From a virus, in the IMG/VR virus record IMGVR_UViG_3300031576_000080, positions 1 through 47,947 of that record: DNA of 47,947 nucleotides. One strand, 5' to 3'. The position numbers were made by a program, and so were the translations under genes. The notes beneath the pieces were generated by a model that saw only the letters and a list, made by a program, of their open reading frames with translations, was not told where the DNA came from and did no database searches. Every line of letters starts with the position of its first letter. The stretch's first letter is position 1. This document shows, in pieces, positions 698-45,652 of the stretch.

Positions 698-2320
698 GTG
701 GACACAACGACCGCCGTTTCCGGCGCGGCGACCGTTAGCAGAGCGACGACCAGACCAATGAAACCGCCTCTCTGGCAACATCAGCGCATCGGCATCGACC
801 TGCTCTGCGAGCGGCCGGCGAACATGCTGGCTTACGACATGGGCACCGGGAAGTCACGAACGGTCATCGAAGCAATCCAAGACCTCAAGCTTCACCGCGT
901 GCTCGTCGCCGCGCCCAAGACGGTCTGCGACGTGTGGCCGGAACAGTTCGCCCTCTGGCACGACTCCATGAACGTCTGCCTACTCAACCGCGGCGCGCTG
1001 CGAACCAGAATGTTCGAGCTCTTCCACGCCTGCGATCGCGGACTACCCACTGCCGTCATCGTCAACTACGACGCGCTCCATGGCGAGCTGGGCGACGACC
1101 TGGAAGAGTACGGCTGGGACATAATCGTCGCCGACGAATCCCACACTATCAAGTCGGCGTCGGCACAACGGTCCCGGTGGTTCAGTAAGATATACCGCAA
1201 AACGAAGCGGCGCGTGTGTTTGTCGGGCACGCCGATGCCGCACTCACCGCTCGACGTATACGGGCAGTACCGCTTCCTAGACCCCGGCATTTACGGGCTG
1301 AATTATCAAGCATTCCGCCACCGATACACCGTCTTCGTAGACCCAGAGCAGCGCAAGAAAGAAGCGAATGAACCGAAGAGAATGCTCCCGTGGAGCCCAC
1401 CGCCGCCGCCGAGCTACGTCGCCTGCTACGCAGGCGAGACCGAAGATGCTCTTCGCGTCGTCGAGGGAAGTCCCAGGAACAAGAAAGCATTCAAGATTCC
1501 GGTGGGCTTCAAAGACCTTGACCACCTGAGCGCTAAATTCCATCGCCTCGCCCACGTCGTGCGCAAGGCCGACGTACTGGACCTGCCGCCGCGGATCGTT
1601 GAACACCGCATCGTCCAACTCGGTCCAGAAGCCCGGCGCGTCTATACGGCGCTGCGCGAGTCCCTAAAGGCGAAGATCGCCGACGGCACGATCACCGTCA
1701 ACAACTGCCTGACGCAACTACTGAGGCTGCAACAGATCACCGGCGGCATCGTCGCCCTGGACGCCGGCGGCGTCCGTCGGGTGGACGACGTGAAGCGCGC
1801 GGCGCTGCGCGAGTTGTTCGACGACGTCGCTCGACCGGAGCACGTCGTCGTCTTCGCCCGCTTCCGCGCCGACCTCGACGCAATCGCCGAGGCAGCCGTG
1901 CAATCACTCCGGCCGTGCTACGAGCTCAGCGGCCGCCACGCCGCCGACCTGGACGTGTGGCGAACCCACCCCGGGGCCGTGCTCGCCGCGCAGATTCAGA
2001 CCGGCGGGCAGGGCATCGACCTCACGGCATCGGCCTACGCCGTGTATTACTCCGTGGGATTCTCGCTCGCGGAGTATGAGCAATCAGCAGCGCGACTGGA
2101 CCGACCAGGGCAGACGCGAAGCGTAACCTACACACACTTGATCGCGGAGGACACGATTGATGAAGTCATCTATCGGGCCATCGACAAACGTCGGGACCTT
2201 GTCGCCAGCATTATCGACGGACTACACCGAGGCCGGGATCATCTTGGCCCAGACAGGGAAGAAGTCGATCAGGGCGGAGACGCTGAATCGGCCACGCAAC
2301 CATCTCGCCTCTTCGTTTGA
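698..2320 (+). CDS. SNF2-type superfamily 2 DNA helicase/translocase
   Basis: A 540-residue DNA-dependent ATPase of the SNF2/DEAD branch. Motif I is DMGTGKS at residues 48-53. Motif II is DESH at 146-149 (DEAH in most relatives). Motif III is SGTPM at 176-180. The C-terminal helicase lobe ends with QTGGQGIDL and the SNF2-typical QSAARLDRPGQ near 460. It is compact, as phage versions are, and probably remodels replication or recombination intermediates. GTG 698 is the longest start; ATG 758 (MKPPLWQHQ) lies just before motif Q and could be the real one. The last ~30 codons have low GC at third positions and overlap the next gene, so the C-terminus may be an overprinted tail. Confidence 0.9.
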   Translation: MDTTTAVSGAATVSRATTRPMKPPLWQHQRIGIDLLCERPANMLAYDMGTGKSRTVIEAIQDLKLHRVLVAAPKTVCDVWPEQFALWHDSMNVCLLNRGALRTRMFELFHACDRGLPTAVIVNYDALHGELGDDLEEYGWDIIVADESHTIKSASAQRSRWFSKIYRKTKRRVCLSGTPMPHSPLDVYGQYRFLDPGIYGLNYQAFRHRYTVFVDPEQRKKEANEPKRMLPWSPPPPPSYVACYAGETEDALRVVEGSPRNKKAFKIPVGFKDLDHLSAKFHRLAHVVRKADVLDLPPRIVEHRIVQLGPEARRVYTALRESLKAKIADGTITVNNCLTQLLRLQQITGGIVALDAGGVRRVDDVKRAALRELFDDVARPEHVVVFARFRADLDAIAEAAVQSLRPCYELSGRHAADLDVWRTHPGAVLAAQIQTGGQGIDLTASAYAVYYSVGFSLAEYEQSAARLDRPGQTRSVTYTHLIAEDTIDEVIYRAIDKRRDLVASIIDGLHRGRDHLGPDREEVDQGGDAESATQPSRLFV

Positions 2321-2756: not shown

Positions 2757-3560
2757 GTGGGTAAAGGCAACCAGAAAGCAAATCAGATTGCGATCACCAC
2801 CGTAATGGCGCCTCCGCCGGCGTACTTGTCGAAGTTCTGCGATGGAGCGGGGGTCAAGGAGCTTGAAACCACGGCGACGATCCCGCGGCTGCGCATCGTG
2901 CAGTCGATGAGCGACACGGAACTGAAGGACGCCTTCGGCGAGGGCGCCGTCATCTTGAAGGACGATGCCGAGCTCATCGCGGAGAAGGAGAAGCCGTTCT
3001 CGGCGATCCCGATCATCTACTACGAATCGTTCGAGCAGTGGCGCGACGTGAACGACGCCGCGAACGCGAGTCCGATTGTGGCGGCCACGATGAACCGGAC
3101 GAGTGTGCTCGCCGACAGGGCCATGCAGCGCCTCATCGAGCCATACCCGGACAATGGCAAACTGTCATACTCGTATCGCCACTGCCTGAACCTGATCCTG
3201 CTGCTGCTGGACGCCAAGCACCGCGCCGGCGGGCAGTGCATCTACACATGGATGCGCGGCGAGTTCAAGCTCGGCACCGGCGTGGTCGGCTTTCTGCGTC
3301 GGCGATTGATGGTGGCCGCCAAGCCCGATGGAACGACGCCGCCCATCTTCTCGCTCGTCTTGTCCCTGCACAGCGAGCCGACCAAGAATCGCAAGAGCCA
3401 ATCGTGGTACGTGTTGAACGTGGACCGCGACGCTGTGGGCGACAAGTGGTGGACGCCGGAAGCGCTCATGCCCGGCGTCCGCGACCTGTACCTCGCCGCC
3501 AAGGAGAGCCGCGATCACGGGCGTGTGGATGCGCCAACGGCGGAGGGTGCTGAAGGATGA
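2757..3560 (+). CDS. Conserved phage protein in the replication region
   Basis: A 267-residue protein from GTG 2757, with a strong AAGGAGGA site 5-6 nt upstream. A 14-codon ORF (2720-2764) bridges it to the previous gene and may couple translation. The text PRLRIVQSMS...AFGEGAVILKDD and then PFSAIPIIYYESFEQW resembles phage proteins found beside helicases and recombinases that are sometimes proposed to bind single-stranded DNA. I cannot confirm that. The C-terminus (KSQSWYVLNVDRDAVGDKW) looks beta-rich. Confidence 0.7.
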   Translation: MGKGNQKANQIAITTVMAPPPAYLSKFCDGAGVKELETTATIPRLRIVQSMSDTELKDAFGEGAVILKDDAELIAEKEKPFSAIPIIYYESFEQWRDVNDAANASPIVAATMNRTSVLADRAMQRLIEPYPDNGKLSYSYRHCLNLILLLLDAKHRAGGQCIYTWMRGEFKLGTGVVGFLRRRLMVAAKPDGTTPPIFSLVLSLHSEPTKNRKSQSWYVLNVDRDAVGDKWWTPEALMPGVRDLYLAAKESRDHGRVDAPTAEGAEG

Positions 3561-3665: not shown

Positions 3666-5360
3666 ATGGACGCAGCCGAATTCCTCGATCGCCTGTTCGG
3701 GCAATGGATCGGGCCGGAAGCGCGGTTGTCCCTCTTCACGCTTCCGGGCGGGCGCACGGCTTGGTTCGAGGACCCCGCTGCTGCGGCCGAGTACGCAGTG
3801 CGTTGCCGGGATCAGTTCAACGTCTACTTCGGCGTCGGCCTATACCGACCGGGGATCGTGGCTGGTCGAGGCGGCGCTGCCGACGTGGTGTGCGTGACGA
3901 GCATGTGGGCCGACGTGGACTACGGGCCAGGACACAAGACGACGGTGGCGCCGGACCTGGCGTCGGCACGGAGGATTCTGACGCGCGTCGCGTTGGGGGT
4001 GTCCTTGCTGGTCAACTCCGGCCGCGGCCTGCACCCCTATTGGCTGCTGGCGGAGCCGTGTACACCGCCGCGGGCAGAGGAGTTGGCGAAGCGGTGGAGC
4101 AGTAACATCGTCGCCCATGCCGACACGCTGGGGTGGTCCTGCGACAGCGTGGGCGACCTCGCCCGCGTGCTCCGCGTACCAGGAACATACAACCACAAGG
4201 ACGGCGGGAAGGTTCTCGTCGAGGTCGTCGAGGCCAACGACGTGCTGTACTCCGAGGATGACGTTGAGGCAGCGCTGCCGGTCGCTTCGGTGGAGTCTAT
4301 CGCAACCAGCCCCGTCTATTACCAAGGGCCGCTGTCGCTTGATATGGAGCCGCCGGCGGCCAAACTCTATCGTTTTTTGAGCGAGAATCCACGATTTAGG
4401 AAGACGCTGGACCACAAACGCGGCGCTGATCTTAAGTCGGCGAGCGAGTACGACCTGTCGCTGTGTACCCAAGCTCACCAAGCCGGATGGTCGGACGAGG
4501 AGTGCGTCGCATTGATGATCATGTGCCGCAAAATGCACGGGCTGAATCCAGAGAAACTCCTGCGCCGAGATTACGCACAGCGTACCGTCGCGCTGTCCCA
4601 CCAAGCCGACGTGAACGTGATTGACATGCGCGAGTTGGAGTCGTTCTACGACGAGCCGGGCGGCTCAATGGTGTCGCCCGTTACTCCGCCGAGACCGAGC
4701 CCGGGATCGCCCGACGACACCCCCCTGAACAAACTCAGCCGTCTACTGGCCGCCGAACTGGGGGGATTCGTGCAGTACGGCCACGAGGATAGCCGTGTGT
4801 TCTACTGCTTCCGACTGGCCGACGGCCGCGCGGTCTACATCGCCAACGCCAGAATGCTCCTTGACTTCTCCGCCGTATCCGCTCGCTTCATCGAGGCCGT
4901 TCGCCGACCGATCCCCCACCACAAACCCGCCGTGTGGACCAAGATCGTCGAGCTGCTGCTGTCCATCGTCGAGGTCAACCGCGACGAGGAGTACACCCGC
5001 GCGGGCGATTGCCGCCGCTGGCTGACCGGCTACCTTCGCACCAACCAACCGCTGGCCGCCGACCAGAAGGGTTCGGCGCTGGAACGAAACTCACCCTACA
5101 CATCGGACGGACTTCTGAACGTTCACCTACCGTCGGTACACCGTTGGGTGCGACTCGTCGGAATGGAAAGCGTCCCCGCCGTCGCCATAAGAGAGGCCTT
5201 TCGCGCAGCCGGACTCTCCCCCGCGCGCGTGACGGCGAGGACCGAGAACGGCGTCGTCTGTAGAACCTATTGGAGTGTGCCTTTAGATTCGACAGTAGCA
5301 AACGAGGTTTACGGCGTAATACCTTGTGATACCAATGTAATACTAGACAACGAGTCGTAA
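3666..5360 (+). CDS. Archaeo-eukaryotic primase-like primase-polymerase
   Basis: A 564-residue protein with the three AEP motifs in order: hhDhD as WADVDY (D83, D85), the S-x-H motif as NSGRGLH (H123), and the third metal-binding Asp in VGDLARVLRVPGTYN (D164, with conserved R170 and PGTYN). This is the N-terminal prim-pol fold that makes primers and can extend them. A helical PriCT-like segment follows near 280-340 (YDLSLCTQAHQAGWSDEECVAL), then an uncharacterised C-terminal region. ATG 3666 is preferred because it follows the miniprotein stop; an upstream in-frame start at 3612 would overlap it. With no family A/B/C polymerase found, this enzyme probably primes and may help copy the genome. 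The gene's end carries three GTAATAC-like repeats. Confidence 0.85.
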   Translation: MDAAEFLDRLFGQWIGPEARLSLFTLPGGRTAWFEDPAAAAEYAVRCRDQFNVYFGVGLYRPGIVAGRGGAADVVCVTSMWADVDYGPGHKTTVAPDLASARRILTRVALGVSLLVNSGRGLHPYWLLAEPCTPPRAEELAKRWSSNIVAHADTLGWSCDSVGDLARVLRVPGTYNHKDGGKVLVEVVEANDVLYSEDDVEAALPVASVESIATSPVYYQGPLSLDMEPPAAKLYRFLSENPRFRKTLDHKRGADLKSASEYDLSLCTQAHQAGWSDEECVALMIMCRKMHGLNPEKLLRRDYAQRTVALSHQADVNVIDMRELESFYDEPGGSMVSPVTPPRPSPGSPDDTPLNKLSRLLAAELGGFVQYGHEDSRVFYCFRLADGRAVYIANARMLLDFSAVSARFIEAVRRPIPHHKPAVWTKIVELLLSIVEVNRDEEYTRAGDCRRWLTGYLRTNQPLAADQKGSALERNSPYTSDGLLNVHLPSVHRWVRLVGMESVPAVAIREAFRAAGLSPARVTARTENGVVCRTYWSVPLDSTVANEVYGVIPCDTNVILDNES

Positions 5361-5615
5361 GTCTTTGATTTACAACGATGTAATACCGTAATGCCCGTAA
5401 TACGCAAACTTTTTCTGAAAAACGAAAAGTAAAAAGGTCGCCGCATTACTGGGGTGCTAGATTATTCTACACATGACGCACAATCTACTGGTAACGCCGA
5501 CGTTACAACTTTGTATCTTATAGGACACCCCAAAAGGTCAAGCAACGATTGAATTGTCCTATAAAATGTACAGTTTAGGCGTCTCCGTGCGTACACGGTG
5601 GCCGTCTGTAATACC
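5316..5615. repeat. Iteron-like GTAATACC repeats, candidate replication origin
   Basis: GTAATAC-type octamers occur at 5316-5323, 5326-5333 (GTGATACC), 5337-5344, 5380-5387, 5388-5395 (GTAATGCC), 5397-5404 and 5608-5615, with an inverted partial copy at 5444-5449. The first three are spaced 10-11 bp, one DNA turn. An A/T-rich tract (5405-5437) follows, then hairpin GTAACG-CCGA-CGTTAC at 5491-5506 and inverted repeat TTATAGGAC (5518-5526)/GTCCTATAA (5556-5564). Iterons plus an AT-rich tract between primase and helicase genes is a typical origin layout. A multi-site operator is the alternative. Confidence 0.55.
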
Positions 5616-5642: not shown

Positions 5643-7469
5643 ATGAAACTTCTAGGACGTTATCTGACCGTCGGCCCGCCCGGGACAGGCAAGACGACGT
5701 GGCTCGCTGCCCAGGTGGAGGCGTGCTCGTGCTACGGACAGCGTGTGTTGGTCTGCTCGCTGACCCGCGCGGCCAAGGCCGAGATCGTCGGCCGAGGTCT
5801 CATGGTCCCCGCGGAGGCCGTTGGGACGCTCCACGGGCACGCCTACGCCGCGATCGGGCGTCCGACCATGATTCAGGCCAAAGACGTCGCTGCGTGGAAC
5901 GAGAGGTACCCCGTATTGCGCCTGGGTGGCACCCAGGCCGACGCCGACGACCCGTTCGTCGCGTCCCGGGAGACCGACGGCGACAAACTGCTGAACGCCT
6001 GGAACCTGGCGAGACACCGCCTCTTGATTCCACGCGGAACGCCACGGTACGCTGCGGACCATGAATCGAAAGCCCAACCACTGCGCAAGGTGCGAGAAGC
6101 CGGAGAATCTGCCGGGATCGGGGTTCTGTCGGGAGCACAAGGCGGAGTACATGAGGGATTGGCGCCTAACGAATCCACCAACGGACGCGCAACGAAAGCG
6201 CAACGCGACATACAAGAGGGAGTGGAGGCGTCGCAAGCGATCTCTCCCGACCTCCGCAACTTCGGCGTGAAGTGGGAGACGTGGAAGGCTGAGACCGGCC
6301 TAATCGACTTTGCCGACCAGATCGAACTGGCCATCGACGCTCCGGCGCCGGAGATAGACGTGATCCTGGTGGACGAGGCGCAGGACCTTTCGGCCCTGGA
6401 ATGGCGGCTTGTTGAATCGTGGGCCGAGACTGCCGAGGCCCTTGTGATGGTCGGCGATGCTTGGCAGGCGCTCTACACCTGGCGCGGGGCCGACCCGTCT
6501 TGCCTCGCCCAACCATCCGGTTTCGCCGGCCACAAGGTTCTTGGTCAGTCATACAGATTATCGCCCGCCGTCTACAGCGTCGCTGTGAAGTGGGTGTCGA
6601 TGCGCCTGTCGAGTTACGGGCCGGTCGAGTATCGGCCGACTGATCGGTGGGGGGACGGCGAGGTCCGCCCGATTGAGGCTTCCTGCCGGTTTCCAGAGCC
6701 TGCAGTTGACGAGGCGGAGCGCTTCGCTGACGCCGGCGAGTCCACCGTGTTCCTTGCGTCGTGCGCGTACATGCTGGCGCCGACCATCACCGTGCTCCGC
6801 CAACGAGGCCTGCCGTTTAGCAACCCGTGGCGGACGCACCGCGGCGCCTGGAACCCGCTGAGCCCGTCCCGCGACGGCGTCGGCGCCGCCAGTCGGCTGC
6901 TGTCGTTCCTGTCGGCCTACGACTTCGAATCCGAGGACGGGCATACCGTAGGTCGGCTGGCTCACTGGACGACGGCCTGCCCGGTGGCGGGGTTGATGCA
7001 GAAGGGCGGCCACCCGCGAATCGAGAAGGCGGCCGAGGAGAACCCCGGCGACGCCGCGGAACATTACGTCCGAACGTTGTTTCTGCCGGAGCGGATGGAG
7101 AACGTGTGGCGAATTCTGCGAGGCGAGATGCCGCTGGCCGAGGCGATCGCGTGGTTCTGCTCGTTCGTCCACGCAAAGTACGCCAAGGCGACGGACTACG
7201 CGGCGCGGGTGTTGAGCTTGCGCGGGTTCGCAGCGCTGCGCGAGCCGCCGCGGATTCACGTGGGGACGATCCACAGCTTAAAGGGGGGAGAGGCCGACAA
7301 CGTGGTGCTGTACCCCGACCTCTCGCTCGCCGCGCAGCAGGAGTGGGACGGCCGGCCGGAGCAACGGGATAATGTCGTGCGGACGTTCTACGTCGGCCTG
7401 ACGCGGGCGAGGAAGCGCGTGCTCCTCGCTCAGCAGGCAGGACCGTTCGCAGTGGAGATTCGGATCTGA
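5643..7469 (+). CDS. UvrD/PcrA-type superfamily 1 DNA helicase
   Basis: A 608-residue 3'-5' helicase. Motif I is GPPGTGKTT (11-19), motif II ILVDEAQDLS, motif III VGDAWQALYTWRGA, motif IV GQSYRLS, motif V GTIHSLKGGEADNV, motif VI TFYVGLTRARKRVLL. All key residues are present. ATG 5643 is chosen: it sits just before motif I, and the upstream GTG 5598 would put a GTAATACC repeat inside the gene. Between the end of domain 1A (RHRLLIPRGTPRY) and KWETWKAETGLIDFADQ is an extra stretch of about 60 residues that looks unlike UvrD and coincides with a nested ORF (6061-6270). The helicase frame stays open through it. Confidence 0.9.
   Translation: MKLLGRYLTVGPPGTGKTTWLAAQVEACSCYGQRVLVCSLTRAAKAEIVGRGLMVPAEAVGTLHGHAYAAIGRPTMIQAKDVAAWNERYPVLRLGGTQADADDPFVASRETDGDKLLNAWNLARHRLLIPRGTPRYAADHESKAQPLRKVREAGESAGIGVLSGAQGGVHEGLAPNESTNGRATKAQRDIQEGVEASQAISPDLRNFGVKWETWKAETGLIDFADQIELAIDAPAPEIDVILVDEAQDLSALEWRLVESWAETAEALVMVGDAWQALYTWRGADPSCLAQPSGFAGHKVLGQSYRLSPAVYSVAVKWVSMRLSSYGPVEYRPTDRWGDGEVRPIEASCRFPEPAVDEAERFADAGESTVFLASCAYMLAPTITVLRQRGLPFSNPWRTHRGAWNPLSPSRDGVGAASRLLSFLSAYDFESEDGHTVGRLAHWTTACPVAGLMQKGGHPRIEKAAEENPGDAAEHYVRTLFLPERMENVWRILRGEMPLAEAIAWFCSFVHAKYAKATDYAARVLSLRGFAALREPPRIHVGTIHSLKGGEADNVVLYPDLSLAAQQEWDGRPEQRDNVVRTFYVGLTRARKRVLLAQQAGPFAVEIRI
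6061..6270 (+). CDS. Zinc-ribbon-like small protein nested in the UvrD gene
   Basis: A 69-residue ORF in the +1 frame relative to UvrD. It begins MNRKPNHCARCEKPE, continues GFCREHKAEYMRDW and YKREWRRRKR. CxxC followed by C-x2-H, then repeated Y-M/K-R-x-W basic helices, is the layout of small phage proteins that begin with a zinc knuckle. By hand count about 45 of 62 third positions are G/C in this frame, against roughly half in the UvrD frame, so this frame was probably the original coding one. No strong ribosome site precedes it. It may be a captured small gene inserted in multiples of three, possibly expressed separately. Confidence 0.5.
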   Translation: MNRKPNHCARCEKPENLPGSGFCREHKAEYMRDWRLTNPPTDAQRKRNATYKREWRRRKRSLPTSATSA

Positions 7470-8123: not shown

Positions 8124-9686
8124 GTGAATTGGACGAAAGTATCGCCAACTGGCGACGTGGAAGCCGTTGATATCGCGGCCGCGGTCGTAGTCAAAGACGG
8201 CCGCGGCGGCCGTATTGTGCTGAACGACGGAACGCAGCAGGAACCGGCCGGCTTGCGAGACTTGCTGGTGAAATGGCGGCCAGAAGTTCGCGCACGGTTT
8301 CTTGCCGGATATCCGTCAACATCGATCAGCATGGCGGCCTACATGTTCGCCAACGCGATGACGGAGGACGCGCGTCTGATGTGGTGGTCCACGATGCTCG
8401 CTCGCATCGACCTCGCCCCCCCGCCATGTCCGCCGCTAGACCCGAATGTCATCCAAGCGTGGCCGTTGGCAAACGCGCTGGAGGAACACCTCGACAAGTT
8501 CACTGGCCTGACCAATGGGTGGCTCGTCCACGTCCCCACGCTGCCGGTGCCGTGGTTCGTGCCCGTCGGTGCCTTGGCCGACTTGGAAGATGACGGGGTT
8601 GTCGTATACGTCCCGCAGACGCCCCCAATTCCGCCACCGGCTCCTCCCATTCCACCCCCGCCGACCGAGCCGACGGCGACGTGGACTGACCTTGGCACTG
8701 CTACGTCGGGCACGGGTCATCCGGCAGTAGCGATCGTCGCAATGGATGGTGATCTGCTGCTGCTCTGCACGCGAGACGGTGGACCCGTGGGCCGCACTTG
8801 GTCGGTGCAGGCGCAGTCGCTAAGCCTTGGCTTCCCACTTTCCGCCGACAGCGTGGGCGGTCAGGTCAACGCCATTTACACGACCGGCGGGGTAGTGCAG
8901 ATGTCTCTATACGCACACGGCGACGTGCAAGACTTCGACTCTGTTCCCAAGTCACTTCAACGCCGCGGCACGCCGATCAAGGGCACAGACACCAACGGTC
9001 GTTCCGTGCGGGCGCGGTCAGTGTTCCCGGCGGTTGGCGGCTTGATCTATACGTGCGGCGCGCTGACGCCGACGAAGGGATCGACCGGAGCAGCCGGCGG
9101 ATACGCCAGCGTGTGCGAGGGGGGAGTACAATCAATCCTGTTCCTGTCTACCCCTGTGATCATCGGCGGCGGAATGATCGGGGGGGCGCCACGATTCGTC
9201 ACCGCCCTGGGCACCATTTTGGACGCTTCGGGCGCCGTTCTCTACGACACTGGGATGACCGCTCTGCGCCGCGCCCTGGTAACGGAAACCTCGATTCACA
9301 TCGCCGTCGGCGCGCACACGCTCGAAACCGTCGCCGAAGGCTATCGGGTGAGTGAGACGCCAGGCGCGATTCACAGCGTTGCTACTTTCGGTGACGCCGG
9401 CGCTCGCGAGTGGCCGCTGCCGAACGGGTATACGTGGCCGCTCCGGGGCGTCGGGTTGGAGCTGATGCCGTTGTTCGAGGGGCCGGGCAGCGTGTATGCC
9501 CTCCTGACGGTGGATCACGGCATTCTCGACGCCGACTACTCGCTCTGGCGGGTAAGCGACACGAGTCTGATCCACGTCATCGACCTGGGAGCGTGGCAGA
9601 TGCTCGTCGCCTGTCGGTTCGGCGACAAGATCGCCGCGCTCGCCGTTAAGGATGGTGGGCACCACTTGGGGATCGTTGAGTGCTAG
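8124..9686 (+). CDS. Large Pro-rich, possibly beta-propeller protein, unknown function
   Basis: A 520-residue protein from GTG 8124 with AAGGAG upstream. The N-terminal 150 residues are mixed alpha/beta. A proline linker follows at roughly 165-182 (TPPIPPPAPPIPPPPTEP). The rest is beta-rich and repetitive (VAIVAMDGDLLLLCTRDG, FRVG-type blades, GAWQMLVACRFGDKIAALAV), reminiscent of a beta-propeller. No signal peptide or membrane segment is visible. It stands outside the virion module, next to a DNA methyltransferase, so it may be a non-structural accessory or a receptor-binding protein encoded away from the tail genes. Family not recognised. Confidence 0.6.
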   Translation: MNWTKVSPTGDVEAVDIAAAVVVKDGRGGRIVLNDGTQQEPAGLRDLLVKWRPEVRARFLAGYPSTSISMAAYMFANAMTEDARLMWWSTMLARIDLAPPPCPPLDPNVIQAWPLANALEEHLDKFTGLTNGWLVHVPTLPVPWFVPVGALADLEDDGVVVYVPQTPPIPPPAPPIPPPPTEPTATWTDLGTATSGTGHPAVAIVAMDGDLLLLCTRDGGPVGRTWSVQAQSLSLGFPLSADSVGGQVNAIYTTGGVVQMSLYAHGDVQDFDSVPKSLQRRGTPIKGTDTNGRSVRARSVFPAVGGLIYTCGALTPTKGSTGAAGGYASVCEGGVQSILFLSTPVIIGGGMIGGAPRFVTALGTILDASGAVLYDTGMTALRRALVTETSIHIAVGAHTLETVAEGYRVSETPGAIHSVATFGDAGAREWPLPNGYTWPLRGVGLELMPLFEGPGSVYALLTVDHGILDADYSLWRVSDTSLIHVIDLGAWQMLVACRFGDKIAALAVKDGGHHLGIVEC

Positions 9687-9694
9687 GGGGTGAA

Positions 9695-10459
9695 GTGAAG
9701 CAGTTGGTCTTGTCGTTGTTTCCTGGCATTGACCTGCTCGGCATAGCGTTCGAGCAGGAGGGCTTCTGCGTGGTGCGCGGCCCGGACGTGATCTTCGGCG
9801 GTGACATTCGCGGCTGGGACGTTCCGGCCGGGCGGTTCGACGGCGTGATCGGCGGTCCGCCGTGCCAGACATTCTCTCGGCTAGCGCACATGGTCCGTCA
9901 GAATGGGCATGAGCCGAAGTTCGGCAACCTCATCCCGGAGTTCGAGCGGGTCGTCTCCGAGGCTCGGCCGCAGTGGTTCGTGATGGAGGAAGTCCCCGAC
10001 GCCCCGACGCCAACCGTAGACGCTTACGGCGTGCACTCGTTCCTGCTCAACAACCGCCAACTCGGCGAGCGACAGAACCGCGTCCGGCGGTGGTCGTTCG
10101 GCTGGCGCGGCGAACGTCGCGTGCTCGCCGTCGAGACAGTGGTGTTCGAGAACCAGGAGTATGAGTACGCGGCAACGGGTAGGGGGGACTTCATCAGGCG
10201 CGGACCGATGATCACCATCGGCGGAAGCGGGAGGCGTAAGAAAGATCGAATGAGCAGGATGGGGTACAGAAACAAGGCCGCGTTTCCAGCCCTGTGTGAG
10301 CAGCAGGGCTTGCCGTGTGGATTCGCCCTGCCTGATTTCACGGCGAGAGCTCGTTTGCAGGCAGTGGGCAATGGCGTCCCGCTGCCGATGGGTCGGGCGA
10401 TCGCCAAGGCCGTCCGCCTAGCGAACGCTCCGCTGCTGAATCACAAGGGGGATCGTTGA
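9695..10459 (+). CDS. C5-cytosine DNA methyltransferase (first)
   Basis: A 254-residue Dcm-family enzyme. Motif I is LSLFPGID (6-13), motif IV GGPPCQTFS with nucleophile Cys57 (counting from GTG 9695), motif VI EEVPDA (ENV in most relatives, here EEV), motif VIII ERQNRVRR, motif X LQAVGNGVPLPMGRAIAKAV. It methylates carbon 5 of cytosine using S-adenosylmethionine. It is short, with a small target-recognition region. GTG 9695 has AGGGGG 4 nt upstream; GTG 9680 would overlap the previous gene by 7 nt. No restriction enzyme is adjacent, so it most likely protects phage DNA. Confidence 0.88.
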   Translation: MKQLVLSLFPGIDLLGIAFEQEGFCVVRGPDVIFGGDIRGWDVPAGRFDGVIGGPPCQTFSRLAHMVRQNGHEPKFGNLIPEFERVVSEARPQWFVMEEVPDAPTPTVDAYGVHSFLLNNRQLGERQNRVRRWSFGWRGERRVLAVETVVFENQEYEYAATGRGDFIRRGPMITIGGSGRRKKDRMSRMGYRNKAAFPALCEQQGLPCGFALPDFTARARLQAVGNGVPLPMGRAIAKAVRLANAPLLNHKGDR

Positions 10460-15876: not shown

Positions 15877-16121
15877 TCCTGTTCAGAATTAGTTGGTTTA
15901 AAGGCGAACAAGAACATGGCATTGAAGACGCCAGCTCGACCAACGAAGAAGAGGCCGCGGAGGAAACCAGAGCAATACTAGGCAACAAAGCCCCCCCCGT
16001 GGTGTGTGTTGAGCGCATAGACCGAGACATCTTAGATTACTACGATGCGCAGGCAGTGTGCGTTCCAGGAGTGCGAGGGTTGCTGGACCCTTTGCCTCCA
16101 CCCTTCGCCTCCGCAAGTTGA
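15873..16121 (+). CDS. Small acidic hypothetical protein
   Basis: An 82-residue ORF, ATGA-coupled to the small terminase. The first half is acidic (EDASSTNEEEAAEETRAI) and the C-terminus Pro-rich. It stops 11 nt before the methyltransferase ATG. No family recognised. Confidence 0.45.
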   Translation: MILFRISWFKGEQEHGIEDASSTNEEEAAEETRAILGNKAPPVVCVERIDRDILDYYDAQAVCVPGVRGLLDPLPPPFASAS

Positions 16122-16132
16122 GTCGGACGATT

Positions 16133-18516
<2,384 letters not shown>

Positions 18517-26387: not shown

Positions 26388-28274
26388 TCAGACCCCCGTG
26401 AAGGTGTCTCCACTGACCGGGGCGGTAGTCAGTGCCGTAACCGTGAGGACGCCGCCCGCCGTGGAAGCAGTGATGTCCGTGGCCTGCCCACGCAGATTGA
26501 CGGTCGTCGTGGTCTCATCGAAGATGACGATCCGCCCCTTGAACTGATCCGTTACCGCAGCCGCCGGATCGAGGCTTGATGTAACGATACTCGTCGTGCT
26601 GGACGCCGCACCGACCGTGCCCTTGATGATGGTTCTGGCGCTGCGCTCCAGCCGCGACACTGGACTGGTGTTGTTGTTGATCGCCTGAACGTCACTACTC
26701 ATTCGACCGCCGCTAAGAGCGGCCGGGAGTCGAGTCTGAATATTGTCAGTGTCGGCCTGGACGGTAGCTAGGGCAGCGCTTGTGGCGAGACCGACTTGGA
26801 TTTCGGTCACGGCGTCAGCGGCGAGTTCGGAGGCCCCGATGGCATCCGGCGCGATCTTCGCCGCCGTGATGGCATCCGCAGCGATCGCAGCCGCGTCGAT
26901 CGCACCGGCGGCGAACTTGGCCGCCGTAATCGCCCCGGTTGCAATGGCCGCCGCGTCAATGGCTCCGGCCGCGAATGAGGCAGCGGCAATCCCTCCTACC
27001 GCTGGGTTGGCAGTAAGCGTTTCCGTGACGTTGAATGCGGCATTGTCGATCGCCCCCGCTCCGAACGAGGCAGCGGTAATCCCGCCGGCCGCCGGGTTCG
27101 CAGTCAGCGTCTCTGTAACGTTAAAGGCCGCGTTGTCGATCGCGCCGGCCGCGAAACTCCCCGCCACGACTGCTCCCGTACCGACGACCTGAGCGTTGGC
27201 GTTCACGCGGCCGGAGATGAGGGCGTTGACGGCCGACCCATCCCACAACTCCACATCCGACCGGGCCGCCAGAAGAATCTCGTAGGTCTGGGTGGCCACC
27301 GCCTGAGTCGTCGCCGGAGCGAAAGTAAAGGTCGCGGCATCGAATGCAGTGATAAGTCGAACCTGGCCGCTGATCGTCCCGCTGGTAAAGAGAAGCAGAC
27401 ACCCCTTCCAGTAATCCGTGTCGGCCTCGGTTCTCGCGGCGTCCACCATCGTCGTCGTCGAGCCGGAGTCCGCTGTACCACTGACCAACGATCTGATCTT
27501 GGTCACGGCGTCGGTTGCCAGAGCGTCGGCGTCGATCGCCCCCGTGGCCACGGCTGCCGCCGTGATCACTCCCGCAGCCATCGCCCCCACACTGGCGTCG
27601 ATGCGACCGGAGACCAGAGCAGCGGGGAGCCGCGCCTGGATGTCATTGGTGTCGGCCTGAATGGAGGCCGTCTCCGTCTTGATCGTGTCCAACGTCGCCG
27701 TCGTCGCGGCCCCGGCGACGTGGGTGATGTCAACCTCTGGAACCCCGGCTACCGTAGGCGTTGCCGCCGCCGTGCCGAGCCAGCGCACCACGTTTCCGTC
27801 GATCATGCCGTTGGCTGGCTGGTTGATCTGACCCGCCCCCGTTCCGCGCGTGTACAGCCCCCCGGCAGCTTCCGCCGCGACGTTCGGGATCGCTCCGCCG
27901 GTGGTGGCGAAGAGGGCATCGTACAGTGCAGCATTCAGAACCATGAACTCGTGAAATACCGGAACATGATTCGCGGCATCTGTGATTGACAGGAACATCC
28001 TACCCAGACGGTTCACATCCGCTGCCGCCAATTCCATCTGCATCAGACCAGCATCGCCGCCGGTGATGTAGTTCAGGTCGTTCGCCGTCGCCGCTGTGGC
28101 TCCGGTGATGTTGTCCAGGATCAGCGTCGGCGCAGCACCGTCGTCGGTATCCGCCGTCAACGTGATGCGCTCATTGGTGATGGTCAGGGCGTTCTCGATG
28201 GTCACGCCGTCCGTCTTGTCATAGAACGGGCCGACTGTGATGATAACCGCCGTGTTTTTCCGCAGAAAGCGCAT
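26388..28274 (-). CDS. Tail-fibre-like protein with Ala-rich repeats
   Basis: A 628-residue protein. Its middle is made of repeats typical of fibrous trimers: two 30-residue units (FAAGAIDNAAFNVTETLT...), then 20-residue units (AGAIDAAAIATGAITAAKF) and shorter A-I-x-A-A steps. Beta-rich domains flank them. Such A-G-A-I repeats form beta-solenoid or coiled shafts in fibres. The N-terminus (MRFLRKNTAVIITVGPF) may attach to the tail. Repeat number probably varies between strains. Confidence 0.7.
   Translation of the reverse strand: MRFLRKNTAVIITVGPFYDKTDGVTIENALTITNERITLTADTDDGAAPTLILDNITGATAATANDLNYITGGDAGLMQMELAAADVNRLGRMFLSITDAANHVPVFHEFMVLNAALYDALFATTGGAIPNVAAEAAGGLYTRGTGAGQINQPANGMIDGNVVRWLGTAAATPTVAGVPEVDITHVAGAATTATLDTIKTETASIQADTNDIQARLPAALVSGRIDASVGAMAAGVITAAAVATGAIDADALATDAVTKIRSLVSGTADSGSTTTMVDAARTEADTDYWKGCLLLFTSGTISGQVRLITAFDAATFTFAPATTQAVATQTYEILLAARSDVELWDGSAVNALISGRVNANAQVVGTGAVVAGSFAAGAIDNAAFNVTETLTANPAAGGITAASFGAGAIDNAAFNVTETLTANPAVGGIAAASFAAGAIDAAAIATGAITAAKFAAGAIDAAAIAADAITAAKIAPDAIGASELAADAVTEIQVGLATSAALATVQADTDNIQTRLPAALSGGRMSSDVQAINNNTSPVSRLERSARTIIKGTVGAASSTTSIVTSSLDPAAAVTDQFKGRIVIFDETTTTVNLRGQATDITASTAGGVLTVTALTTAPVSGDTFTGV
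26916..27155 (-). repeat. Tandem repeats inside the fibre gene
   Basis: Two 90-bp units (27066-27155 and 26976-27065) encode nearly identical 30-residue blocks starting FAAG/FGAG and ending AAS. A 60-bp unit follows (26916-26975). The units differ at several silent positions, so the duplication is not recent. Confidence 0.75.
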
Positions 28275-44286: not shown

Positions 44287-44373
44287 TGTACCACCGTGGT
44301 ACAGCCTGTACCACCGTGTACCACCGTGTACCACCGTGTACCACCGTGTACCACCGTGTACCACGGTGGTACA
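44287..44373. repeat. 10-bp tandem array bounded by 17-bp palindromes, divergent control region
   Basis: Five exact copies of TGTACCACCG (44307-44356) and one variant TGTACCACGG (44357-44366). On the left is the palindrome TGTACCACCGTGGTACA (44287-44303), on the right TGTACCACGGTGGTACA (44357-44373). All use the half-site TGTACCAC. Spacing of 10 bp puts each site on the same DNA face. Placed between divergent operons, it may be an operator for a cooperative repressor, a partition-like site, or a second set of iterons. Confidence 0.85.
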
Positions 44374-44962: not shown

Positions 44963-45652
44963 ATGCTAAGCGAGCGATACAGACCGAAAACGTGGGCGGA
45001 CTTCGTCGGCCAGCCAATCATCGACGACATCCGCCAAGCGTGCGGTGACGCGCACCTGTTCGACGGCTGCGGGGAGCGCTGGCTATTCGAGTCCGACGGG
45101 CACGCCGGCTGCGGGAAAACATCCGCAGCCTACATGGTCGCGCGCGCGCTCGGCGTCGGCGAACACGCGACCGAGTGCATCGACTCGCGGGCGGTGACGA
45201 TTGCCGACCTGCGAGAGTTGTCGGCGTCCATGCGGTTCTACGGATGGGGCGGCAACGGCCAGCGAGCGTACATCGTCGATGAAGTCCACGACCTGAATCC
45301 GGCGTGCCTGCGGATGCTGCTCGGCTTGCTGGAATCGCTTCCGCCTCACGTCATCGTCATCGGGACCACGACGCGAACGGACTGGGCCGACAGCGTGAAC
45401 GGTCTGTATTCGCGGTGGCGGCGCTTCACCTTCCGCAAGCCGGCGGCGCCGGAGATAGCGGAGCTGCTCGAGCGCATCGCCTTGCGGGAGGGTTACGACG
45501 TTCCGGCCGGTTTCCGCTGGCTATCCTATGTGCAGGGCAAGTGCGGCGCCCGCCTGGTCGGCAACAACGTCCGTGATTGCATCGACCAGCTCCCGGACGC
45601 GCTGCGGAGATACAAGAGATCGGCCGTAGCGGCCGTAGAGTGCGCAGCATGA
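44963..45652 (+). CDS. AAA+ clamp-loader-like ATPase (RFC small subunit/DnaX type)
   Basis: A 229-residue ATPase. Signature RYRPKTWADFVGQ (5-17), Walker A GHAGCGKT (46-53), Walker B YIVDEVHDL (103-111), sensor 1 VIGTTTR (132-138) and an SRW at 150-152 in place of the SRC arginine finger. These are the features of RFC/DnaX clamp-loader subunits, but the C-terminal collar domain is short. No sliding clamp or polymerase gene was recognised, so it may load the host clamp or have another remodelling job. GGGAG precedes ATG 44963. A G-rich tract (44901-44921) lies in its upstream region. Confidence 0.85.
   Translation: MLSERYRPKTWADFVGQPIIDDIRQACGDAHLFDGCGERWLFESDGHAGCGKTSAAYMVARALGVGEHATECIDSRAVTIADLRELSASMRFYGWGGNGQRAYIVDEVHDLNPACLRMLLGLLESLPPHVIVIGTTTRTDWADSVNGLYSRWRRFTFRKPAAPEIAELLERIALREGYDVPAGFRWLSYVQGKCGARLVGNNVRDCIDQLPDALRRYKRSAVAAVECAA

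What the first reader, a model, noticed from the sequence alone, without database searches (positions are those of the whole stretch)
5316..5615. GTAATACC iterons flanking an AT-rich tract: candidate origin
Seven GTAATAC-type octamers, three of them one helical turn apart and three nearly contiguous, surround an A/T-rich stretch and two inverted repeats between primase and UvrD genes in a GC-rich genome. Some copies lie inside the primase gene's end, so the coding sequence has been constrained by them.
Basis: partly seen in the sequence, partly recalled or inferred. Interest (0 to 1): 0.7.

Follow-up and report, generated by a model that had tools for sequence, protein, structure and literature searches.

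The report
Iteron origin behind a phage primase
A tailed phage carries, right behind the gene for its DNA primase, a cluster of short repeats around the easiest-to-melt stretch of its genome, very likely the place where its DNA replication starts; the same layout, with different repeat sequences, recurs behind related primases in many other phages and plasmids, where we found no description of it.

Summary
Seven GTAATACC-type octamers lie at 5316-5615, six within 89 bp; no local shuffle among 1,000 gave more than four. It is one of only two strong short-repeat clusters in this complete 47.8-kb phage genome and coincides with the genome's least stable DNA. The first three copies encode a predicted-disordered, unconserved tail of the primase, just after a predicted winged-helix domain.

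GTAATACC was found behind no other primase, but the arrangement recurs. In 92 dereplicated loci encoding relatives of the primase, the strongest repeat cluster lies at the primase 3' end in 41. Thirty-two beat all 100 local shuffles there, against 1 of 91 control gene ends; regions upstream of the primase never score. Repeats usually flank an AT-rich minimum. This is the layout of PICI/SaPI replication origins, published as unique to those elements.

Best explanation: a replication origin bound by the primase's own C-terminal winged helix. Neither binding nor replication was shown. The site is not at a GC-skew extreme, about two thirds of the closest helicase-less primase relatives lack significant repeats, and a second array at 44.3 kb lies near the skew minimum.

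The parts
698..2320 (+). SNF2-type helicase gene, first gene of the conserved replication cassette
   Evidence: Pfam SNF2-rel_dom E 9e-23; relatives in the same cassette
2757..3560 (+). Pam3 gp34-like gene of the cassette, function unknown
   Evidence: Pfam PF23977 E 4.5e-10; relative in L036
3612..5360 (+). primase-polymerase (AEP/PrimPol) gene, 582 aa, no helicase domain; proposed initiator
   Evidence: PHROG 2478 E 3.8e-24; fold matches 6zp9 E 1.8e-9 and 3h20 E 7.1e-8; no Walker A motif; family alignment
5097..5312 (+). part of the primase gene that encodes the predicted winged helix (residues 496-567); proposed iteron-binding domain
   Evidence: AlphaFold2 models; generic winged-helix matches in the PDB
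5313..5357 (+). codons of the disordered, unconserved primase tail (residues 568-582) that contain the first iteron triad
   Evidence: pLDDT under 50; unaligned in the family; GC3 0.40 against 0.77
5316..5344 (+). iteron triad 1: 5316-5323, 5326-5333, 5337-5344, about one helical turn apart
5335..5384 (.). least stable 50 bp of the genome, between the triads; proposed unwinding element
   Evidence: nearest-neighbour stability
5380..5404 (+). iteron triad 2: 5380-5387, 5388-5395, 5397-5404, nearly contiguous
5405..5437 (.). A/T-rich tract next to triad 2
   Evidence: sequence; lies in the lowest-GC stretch of the genome
5442..5449 (-). weak inverted copy GTAATGCG
   Evidence: matrix scan
5491..5506 (.). 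short inverted repeat GTAACG-CCGA-CGTTAC
5518..5564 (.). inverted repeat with 10-bp perfect arms (5518-5527 and 5555-5564) and 27-nt loop; possible hairpin for priming
5608..5615 (+). seventh, distal iteron GTAATACC
5643..7469 (+). UvrD-type helicase gene of the cassette; proposed replicative or loading partner
   Evidence: Pfam UvrD-helicase E 2.3e-16; 35% identical to the L027 relative in the same position; synteny

Best explanation
5316-5615 is the replication origin of the phage, of the iteron plus AT-rich type seen in PICIs, placed directly behind the gene of its own initiator. Inferred steps: the C-terminal winged helix of the primase binds the GTAATACC octamers; the two triads, on either side of the least stable DNA of the genome, seed an assembly that melts the spacer and the adjacent A/T tract; the N-terminal PrimPol domain primes on the exposed strands, perhaps at the hairpins; the UvrD helicase encoded next door, perhaps with the SNF2 enzyme, extends the bubble. 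Shown here by computation: the repeats and their improbability, the stability minimum, a helicase-less primase with a predicted winged helix, the conserved SNF2-primase-UvrD cassette, and the recurrence of the arrangement behind related primases. Not shown: protein binding, melting, or initiation at this place.
For: Repeat cluster beyond chance at the least stable DNA of the genome. Among 92 dereplicated loci with a related primase, the strongest repeat cluster lies at the primase 3' end in 41, with at most 6 in any other 600-bp bin; 32 beat all 100 local shuffles against 1 of 91 control ORF ends; 0 of 91 on the 5' side. In 25 of 37 clear cases the same zone holds the least stable 80 bp of the locus (1.8 expected), and in 31 of 37 repeats lie on both sides of the AT minimum. 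L045 has the same primase - repeats around AT tract - UvrD junction. Genes behind the repeats differ between relatives, which fits an origin tied to the primase better than an operator of a given downstream gene. In the TM4-like family repeat identity tracks the primase C-terminus. PICI origins have this layout and can drive plasmid replication (PMC6092414); C-terminal or winged-helix domains bind the repeats in SaPI, SCCmec and P4 systems.
Against: The GC-skew extremes lie at 44.9 and 22.3 kb, not here. The octamer was found behind no other primase. 12 of 18 scored helicase-less or nearest relatives have no significant cluster, several with primase and UvrD genes almost contiguous. No close relative allows a test of conservation at short distance. 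The link between repeats and C-terminus can come from physical linkage alone. No binding or replication data.
Confidence: 0.74

Rival explanations
1. The octamers are operator sites for a transcription regulator (perhaps the primase itself, autoregulating) that controls a promoter in the 282-bp gap in front of UvrD.
For: One copy (5608) lies just upstream of the UvrD start; spacing by helical turns suits a regulator as well as an initiator; the gap lies inside an operon-like row of genes.
Against: No sigma-70-like promoter was found there (other promoter types are not covered). In relatives the repeats stay with the primase 3' end while the downstream gene changes, and they sit on the stability minimum.
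Confidence: 0.14
2. Replication starts at the other array, TGTACCACCG x8 at 44287-44368, and the 5.3-kb repeats do something else.
For: It is the strongest repeat cluster of the genome, lies about 0.6 kb from the GC-skew minimum and between oppositely directed gene blocks.
Against: 17-bp palindromes TGTACCAC-N-GTGGTACA at both ends look like operators of a dimeric repressor between divergent operons (inference). The skew follows gene direction, which can explain its minimum without an origin. The array is not next to the primase and not in the least stable DNA.
Confidence: 0.1
3. The octamers or hairpins are single-stranded priming signals recognised by the PrimPol domain (as NrS-1 polymerase recognises TTTGGTTA, or RepB' its ssi hairpins), not double-stranded binding sites of an initiator.
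For: The primase fold matches RepB'; NrS-1 polymerase primes at an 8-nt motif (PMC8718748); a hairpin with 10-bp arms lies in the gap.
Against: Priming signals need not be clustered around a stability minimum nor be phased by helical turns; all seven octamers point the same way; the hairpin is only modestly unusual. Partly compatible with the best explanation.
Confidence: 0.1
4. The cluster is a chance product of AT-rich sequence.
For: The octamer is AT-rich and the region is the most AT-rich of the genome.
Against: 0 of 1,000 shuffles of the same region reach more than 4 copies; 0 of 100 with both strands.
Confidence: 0.01

Closest known systems
PICI/SaPI replication origins (e.g. SaPIbov1, EcCICFT073)
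   Same: Directly 3' of the gene of the replication protein; [quoted passage not shown] initiator with a C-terminal DNA-binding domain (PMC6092414, PMC7581432).
   Different: Element is a phage with its own structural genes, not a satellite; the adjacent protein is a primase without a helicase domain; some iterons lie inside its coding end; iteron sequence unrelated.
Phage P4 alpha protein with its origin repeats
   Same: Primase with a winged helix proposed to bind origin repeats (PMC4234260 on P4).
   Different: P4 alpha has a bacterial Toprim primase and a helicase domain (PMC4234260); here an AEP PrimPol with a separate UvrD helicase.
pRN1 replicon of Sulfolobus (ORF904 and its 3' stem-loop)
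   Same: PrimPol gene with C-terminal winged helix and an essential origin region directly 3' of the gene (PMC4234260).
   Different: pRN1 origin is a 100-nt stem-loop without iterons, and ORF904 has a helicase domain.
SCCmec Cch2 / CCPol-MP putative origin
   Same: Short direct repeats in the gap behind a replication gene, bound by a C-terminal domain; separate primase and helicase proteins (PMC7581432).
   Different: There the helicase binds the repeats; here the binder is proposed to be the primase. Three 5-nt repeats there, seven octamers here.
RSF1010 oriV with RepA, RepB' and RepC
   Same: Iterons plus hairpins used with a PrimPol-fold primase; RepB' is the second-best fold match (3h20).
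   Different: In RSF1010 three separate proteins bind, unwind and prime; here binding and priming may be joined in one protein.

Membership tests
PICI/SaPI-type origin | lies immediately 3' of the replication-protein gene | tested here: met
   repeats from 44 bp before to 255 bp after the primase stop
[quoted passage not shown]
   triads 5316-5344 and 5380-5404 around the least stable 50 bp, centred at 5360
PICI/SaPI-type origin | adjacent initiator is a helicase (Rep) | tested here: not met
   no Walker A motif in the primase; the helicase-like UvrD is the next gene
PICI/SaPI-type origin | element is a phage satellite | tested here: not met
   terminase, portal, protease and major head protein genes present
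PICI/SaPI-type origin | initiator binds the iterons and the region drives plasmid replication | not testable with these tools
   needs gel shift and plasmid maintenance tests
pRN1-type stem-loop origin | about 100-nt stem-loop (21-nt stem) 3' of the gene, no iterons | tested here: not met
   largest perfect stem 10 bp with 27-nt loop, and iterons present
DnaA-assisted iteron plasmid origin | DnaA boxes next to the iterons | tested here: inconclusive
   only two one-mismatch sites (5414, 5465) near the array; 20 matches genome-wide against 24.7 expected; host DnaA box unknown
AEP/PrimPol primases | homology and fold of the AEP catalytic domain | tested here: met
   PHROG 2478; 6zp9, 3h20; invariant D101 and D103 in the family
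winged-helix DNA-binding domain (primase C-terminus) | strand-helix-helix-strand-wing order with confident model and fold match | tested here: met
   models; matches are generic winged helices with Z 5-7; DNA binding itself not tested

The most novel reading that the evidence does not exclude
A PrimPol without a helicase domain is itself the iteron-binding initiator: winged helix for recognition, PrimPol domain for priming, and a separately encoded UvrD-type (SF1) enzyme as helicase. The initiator-linked iteron/AT-rich origin is then not a PICI peculiarity but a general origin class of phages and plasmids with AEP primases, including TM4 and its relatives, in which the iteron sequence changes freely while position and layout persist.
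Probability: 0.42. Interest if true: 0.78.

Novelty: new variant of a known kind. Interest (0 to 1): 0.62.

Why it matters
Replication origins are unknown for most tailed phages, and they are hard to recognise because their sequence changes from phage to phage. Here position and layout, not sequence, identify them: behind the AEP-primase gene, repeats around the local stability minimum. That gives a direct, testable origin prediction for many phages, including TM4 and its cluster K relatives, whose founding comparative paper does not mention such repeats there. [quoted passage not shown]

Tried and rejected
Close relatives by DNA or single-protein search: none for the primase or UvrD in phages, viral contigs or genome contigs, and only weak or fragmentary ones for terminase and portal, so conservation could not be tested at short distance; a PrimPol-domain alignment (A2) was needed to find relatives.

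So the iteron sequence looks private to this phage.

GC-skew inflection: not at this site. DnaA boxes: not above chance. Sigma-70 promoter scan: nothing. Rfam and tRNA: nothing. PDB sequence search with the primase: nothing.

A first UvrD synteny search failed because the start was taken as 5644, out of frame; corrected to 5643. Two primase stops (L114, L032) were first read through an internal stop, then corrected.

Relatives where the primase 3' end shows no clear cluster: Anoxybacillus and Parageobacillus plasmids, the Rubrobacter plasmid, Oceanotoga phage, Yappy, pXZ1, Riverbug. Winged-helix matches in the PDB are generic and name no closer family. The 10-bp-arm hairpin was considered as the origin proper (pRN1-like) but is only modestly unusual.

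Full report
WHAT THE WINDOW IS. The window is a virus record with a 127-bp direct terminal repeat, hence a complete, circularly permuted genome of 47,820 bp. Terminase, portal, head protease and major head protein genes make it a tailed phage. It has no close relative in the collections. The nearest relatives of its primase are a metagenome phage (L027) and loci in Planctomycetota genomes.

THE OBSERVATION. Seven GTAATACC-type octamers lie in one orientation at 5316, 5326, 5337, 5380, 5388, 5397 and 5608. Six fall within 89 bp. In 1,000 dinucleotide shuffles of the region no octamer reached more than 4 copies per 100 bp. Genome-wide only one other cluster is stronger, a 10-bp array at 44287-44368. 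The spacer between the triads and the A/T tract after them make the least stable 50, 80 and 120 bp of the genome. Two inverted repeats follow; the larger, with 10-bp arms, is matched by 6 of 300 shuffles.

THE IN-GENE COPIES. The first triad encodes residues 569-578 of the primase. In the family alignment the conserved protein ends before that, and in the AlphaFold2 model residues 568-582 have pLDDT under 50. GC at third positions falls from 0.77 to 0.40 in this tail (5 of 552 body windows are as low). The simplest reading (inference) is that the reading frame runs on into the repeat region and the tail tolerates what the repeats dictate.

THE PROTEINS. The 582-aa primase has an AEP/PrimPol domain (fold matches S-2L PrimPol and RepB'), a helical bundle, and a C-terminal part that ends in a predicted winged helix (residues 496-567; domain model pLDDT 92; PDB matches are generic winged helices). 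It has no Walker A motif. Full-length relatives at 23-34% identity share this build. Many lie in a cassette SNF2 helicase - primase - UvrD helicase, as here.

THE COMPARATIVE TEST. I asked whether repeat clusters sit behind related primases more than elsewhere, whatever their sequence. In a first sample of annotated phages and plasmids the best cluster of the 10-13-kb locus lay at the primase 3' end in 13 of 16 actinobacterial cases, and second in one more (Shaobing); Yappy and the Rubrobacter plasmid lack a clear one. I then fetched 157 loci from viral and genome contigs with a PrimPol-domain alignment. After dereplication at 60% identity, together with the annotated loci, 92 remained. The strongest cluster of the locus lies within -150 to +449 of the primase stop in 41 of them; no other 600-bp bin has more than 6. 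A clear score (at least 6) occurs in 40% of these zones and 1.7% of other blocks, and in 0 of 91 zones at the 5' side of the PrimPol domain. With each zone's own composition as the null, 32 of 92 beat all 100 shuffles, against 1 of 91 control ORF ends. In the 37 loci with a clear cluster, 25 hold the least stable 80 bp of the locus in the same zone (1.8 expected), and in 31 repeats lie on both sides of the AT minimum.

WHAT IS AND IS NOT CONSERVED. Repeat sequences differ between lineages, for example GGCACAGA in DarthP, ATGTGGAC in a Nonomuraea plasmid, CAGCAAAC in Nadeem, GTTACCCA in a Clostridia locus. The gene behind them differs too. Among the nearest relatives, L045 has the same primase - repeats around AT tract - UvrD junction; L112, L036, L048 and L107 have clear repeats and L027 weak ones; 12 of the 18 scored have no significant cluster, several with the primase and UvrD genes almost contiguous. 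By eye L028, L032 and L050 also have short repeats in the gap, but they do not pass the test. Where the rest start replication is unexplained. GTAATACC itself was found behind no other primase.

WHAT BINDS. In SaPI Rep and SCCmec Cch2 the C-terminal domain, and in P4 alpha a winged helix, binds the repeats (PMC7581432; PMC4234260). By analogy the primase's winged helix is the likely binder. In the TM4-like family, similarity of repeats between phages goes with similarity of the primase C-terminus (partial r 0.44 given the N-terminal part; the reverse is 0.13). TM4 and Findley share about 80% of the rest of the primase but only 34% of the C-terminus, and their repeats are unrelated. Neighbouring sequences are inherited together, so this is suggestive only.

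COMPARISON WITH THE KNOWN. [quoted passage not shown] The window resembles such an origin in anatomy but is not one by membership: the element is a phage with its own structural genes, and the adjacent protein is not a helicase. The cluster K paper on TM4 describes other repeats but none here (PMC3203893; a search of its text for primase, repeats, iteron, replication and origin terms). The literature searched is the open-access part only, so earlier notice elsewhere is possible.

POINTS AGAINST. The site is not at a skew extreme, though in this genome the skew follows gene direction. The 44.3-kb array near the skew minimum is a possible rival, although its palindromic ends look like repressor operators between divergent operons. 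No experiment is available. I put the origin reading at 0.74.

Noticed in passing
window 44287-44371: Strongest repeat array of the genome: about eight 10-bp units TGTACCACCG, with 17-bp palindromes TGTACCAC-N-GTGGTACA at both ends, between oppositely directed gene blocks and close to the GC-skew minimum (44.9 kb). Looks like an operator array of a divergent promoter; a second origin candidate.
   Followed up: partly
window 44963-45652: Gene resembling a clamp-loader (DnaX/RFC-like AAA+) subunit by eye (GHAGCGKT P-loop; no family search made), while no DNA polymerase gene was recognised among the proteins searched.
   Followed up: no
window 9680-10459, 16058-17095, 17092-18516: Three DNA methyltransferase genes (two C5-cytosine, one N4/N6 type) in one phage genome.
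   Followed up: no
L035 +2287, L047 +2292, L049 +2314 from the PrimPol stop: Where the PrimPol ORF is short (about 210-235 aa), the strong repeat cluster lies about 2.3 kb further on, possibly behind a separate helicase gene; this would fit repeats following the gene with the C-terminal DNA-binding domain. The gene in between was not identified.
   Followed up: no
L005 (Thermus phage Riverbug), near 5711 and 9781: Two very strong short-repeat clusters (10 copies of TAGTCAGA inside the primase gene, 14 copies of TGGTGAAC 3.8 kb downstream), not at the primase 3' end.
   Followed up: no
window 26972-27143: 90-bp tandem repeat, 1.9 copies, inside a minus-strand structural-region gene.
   Followed up: no
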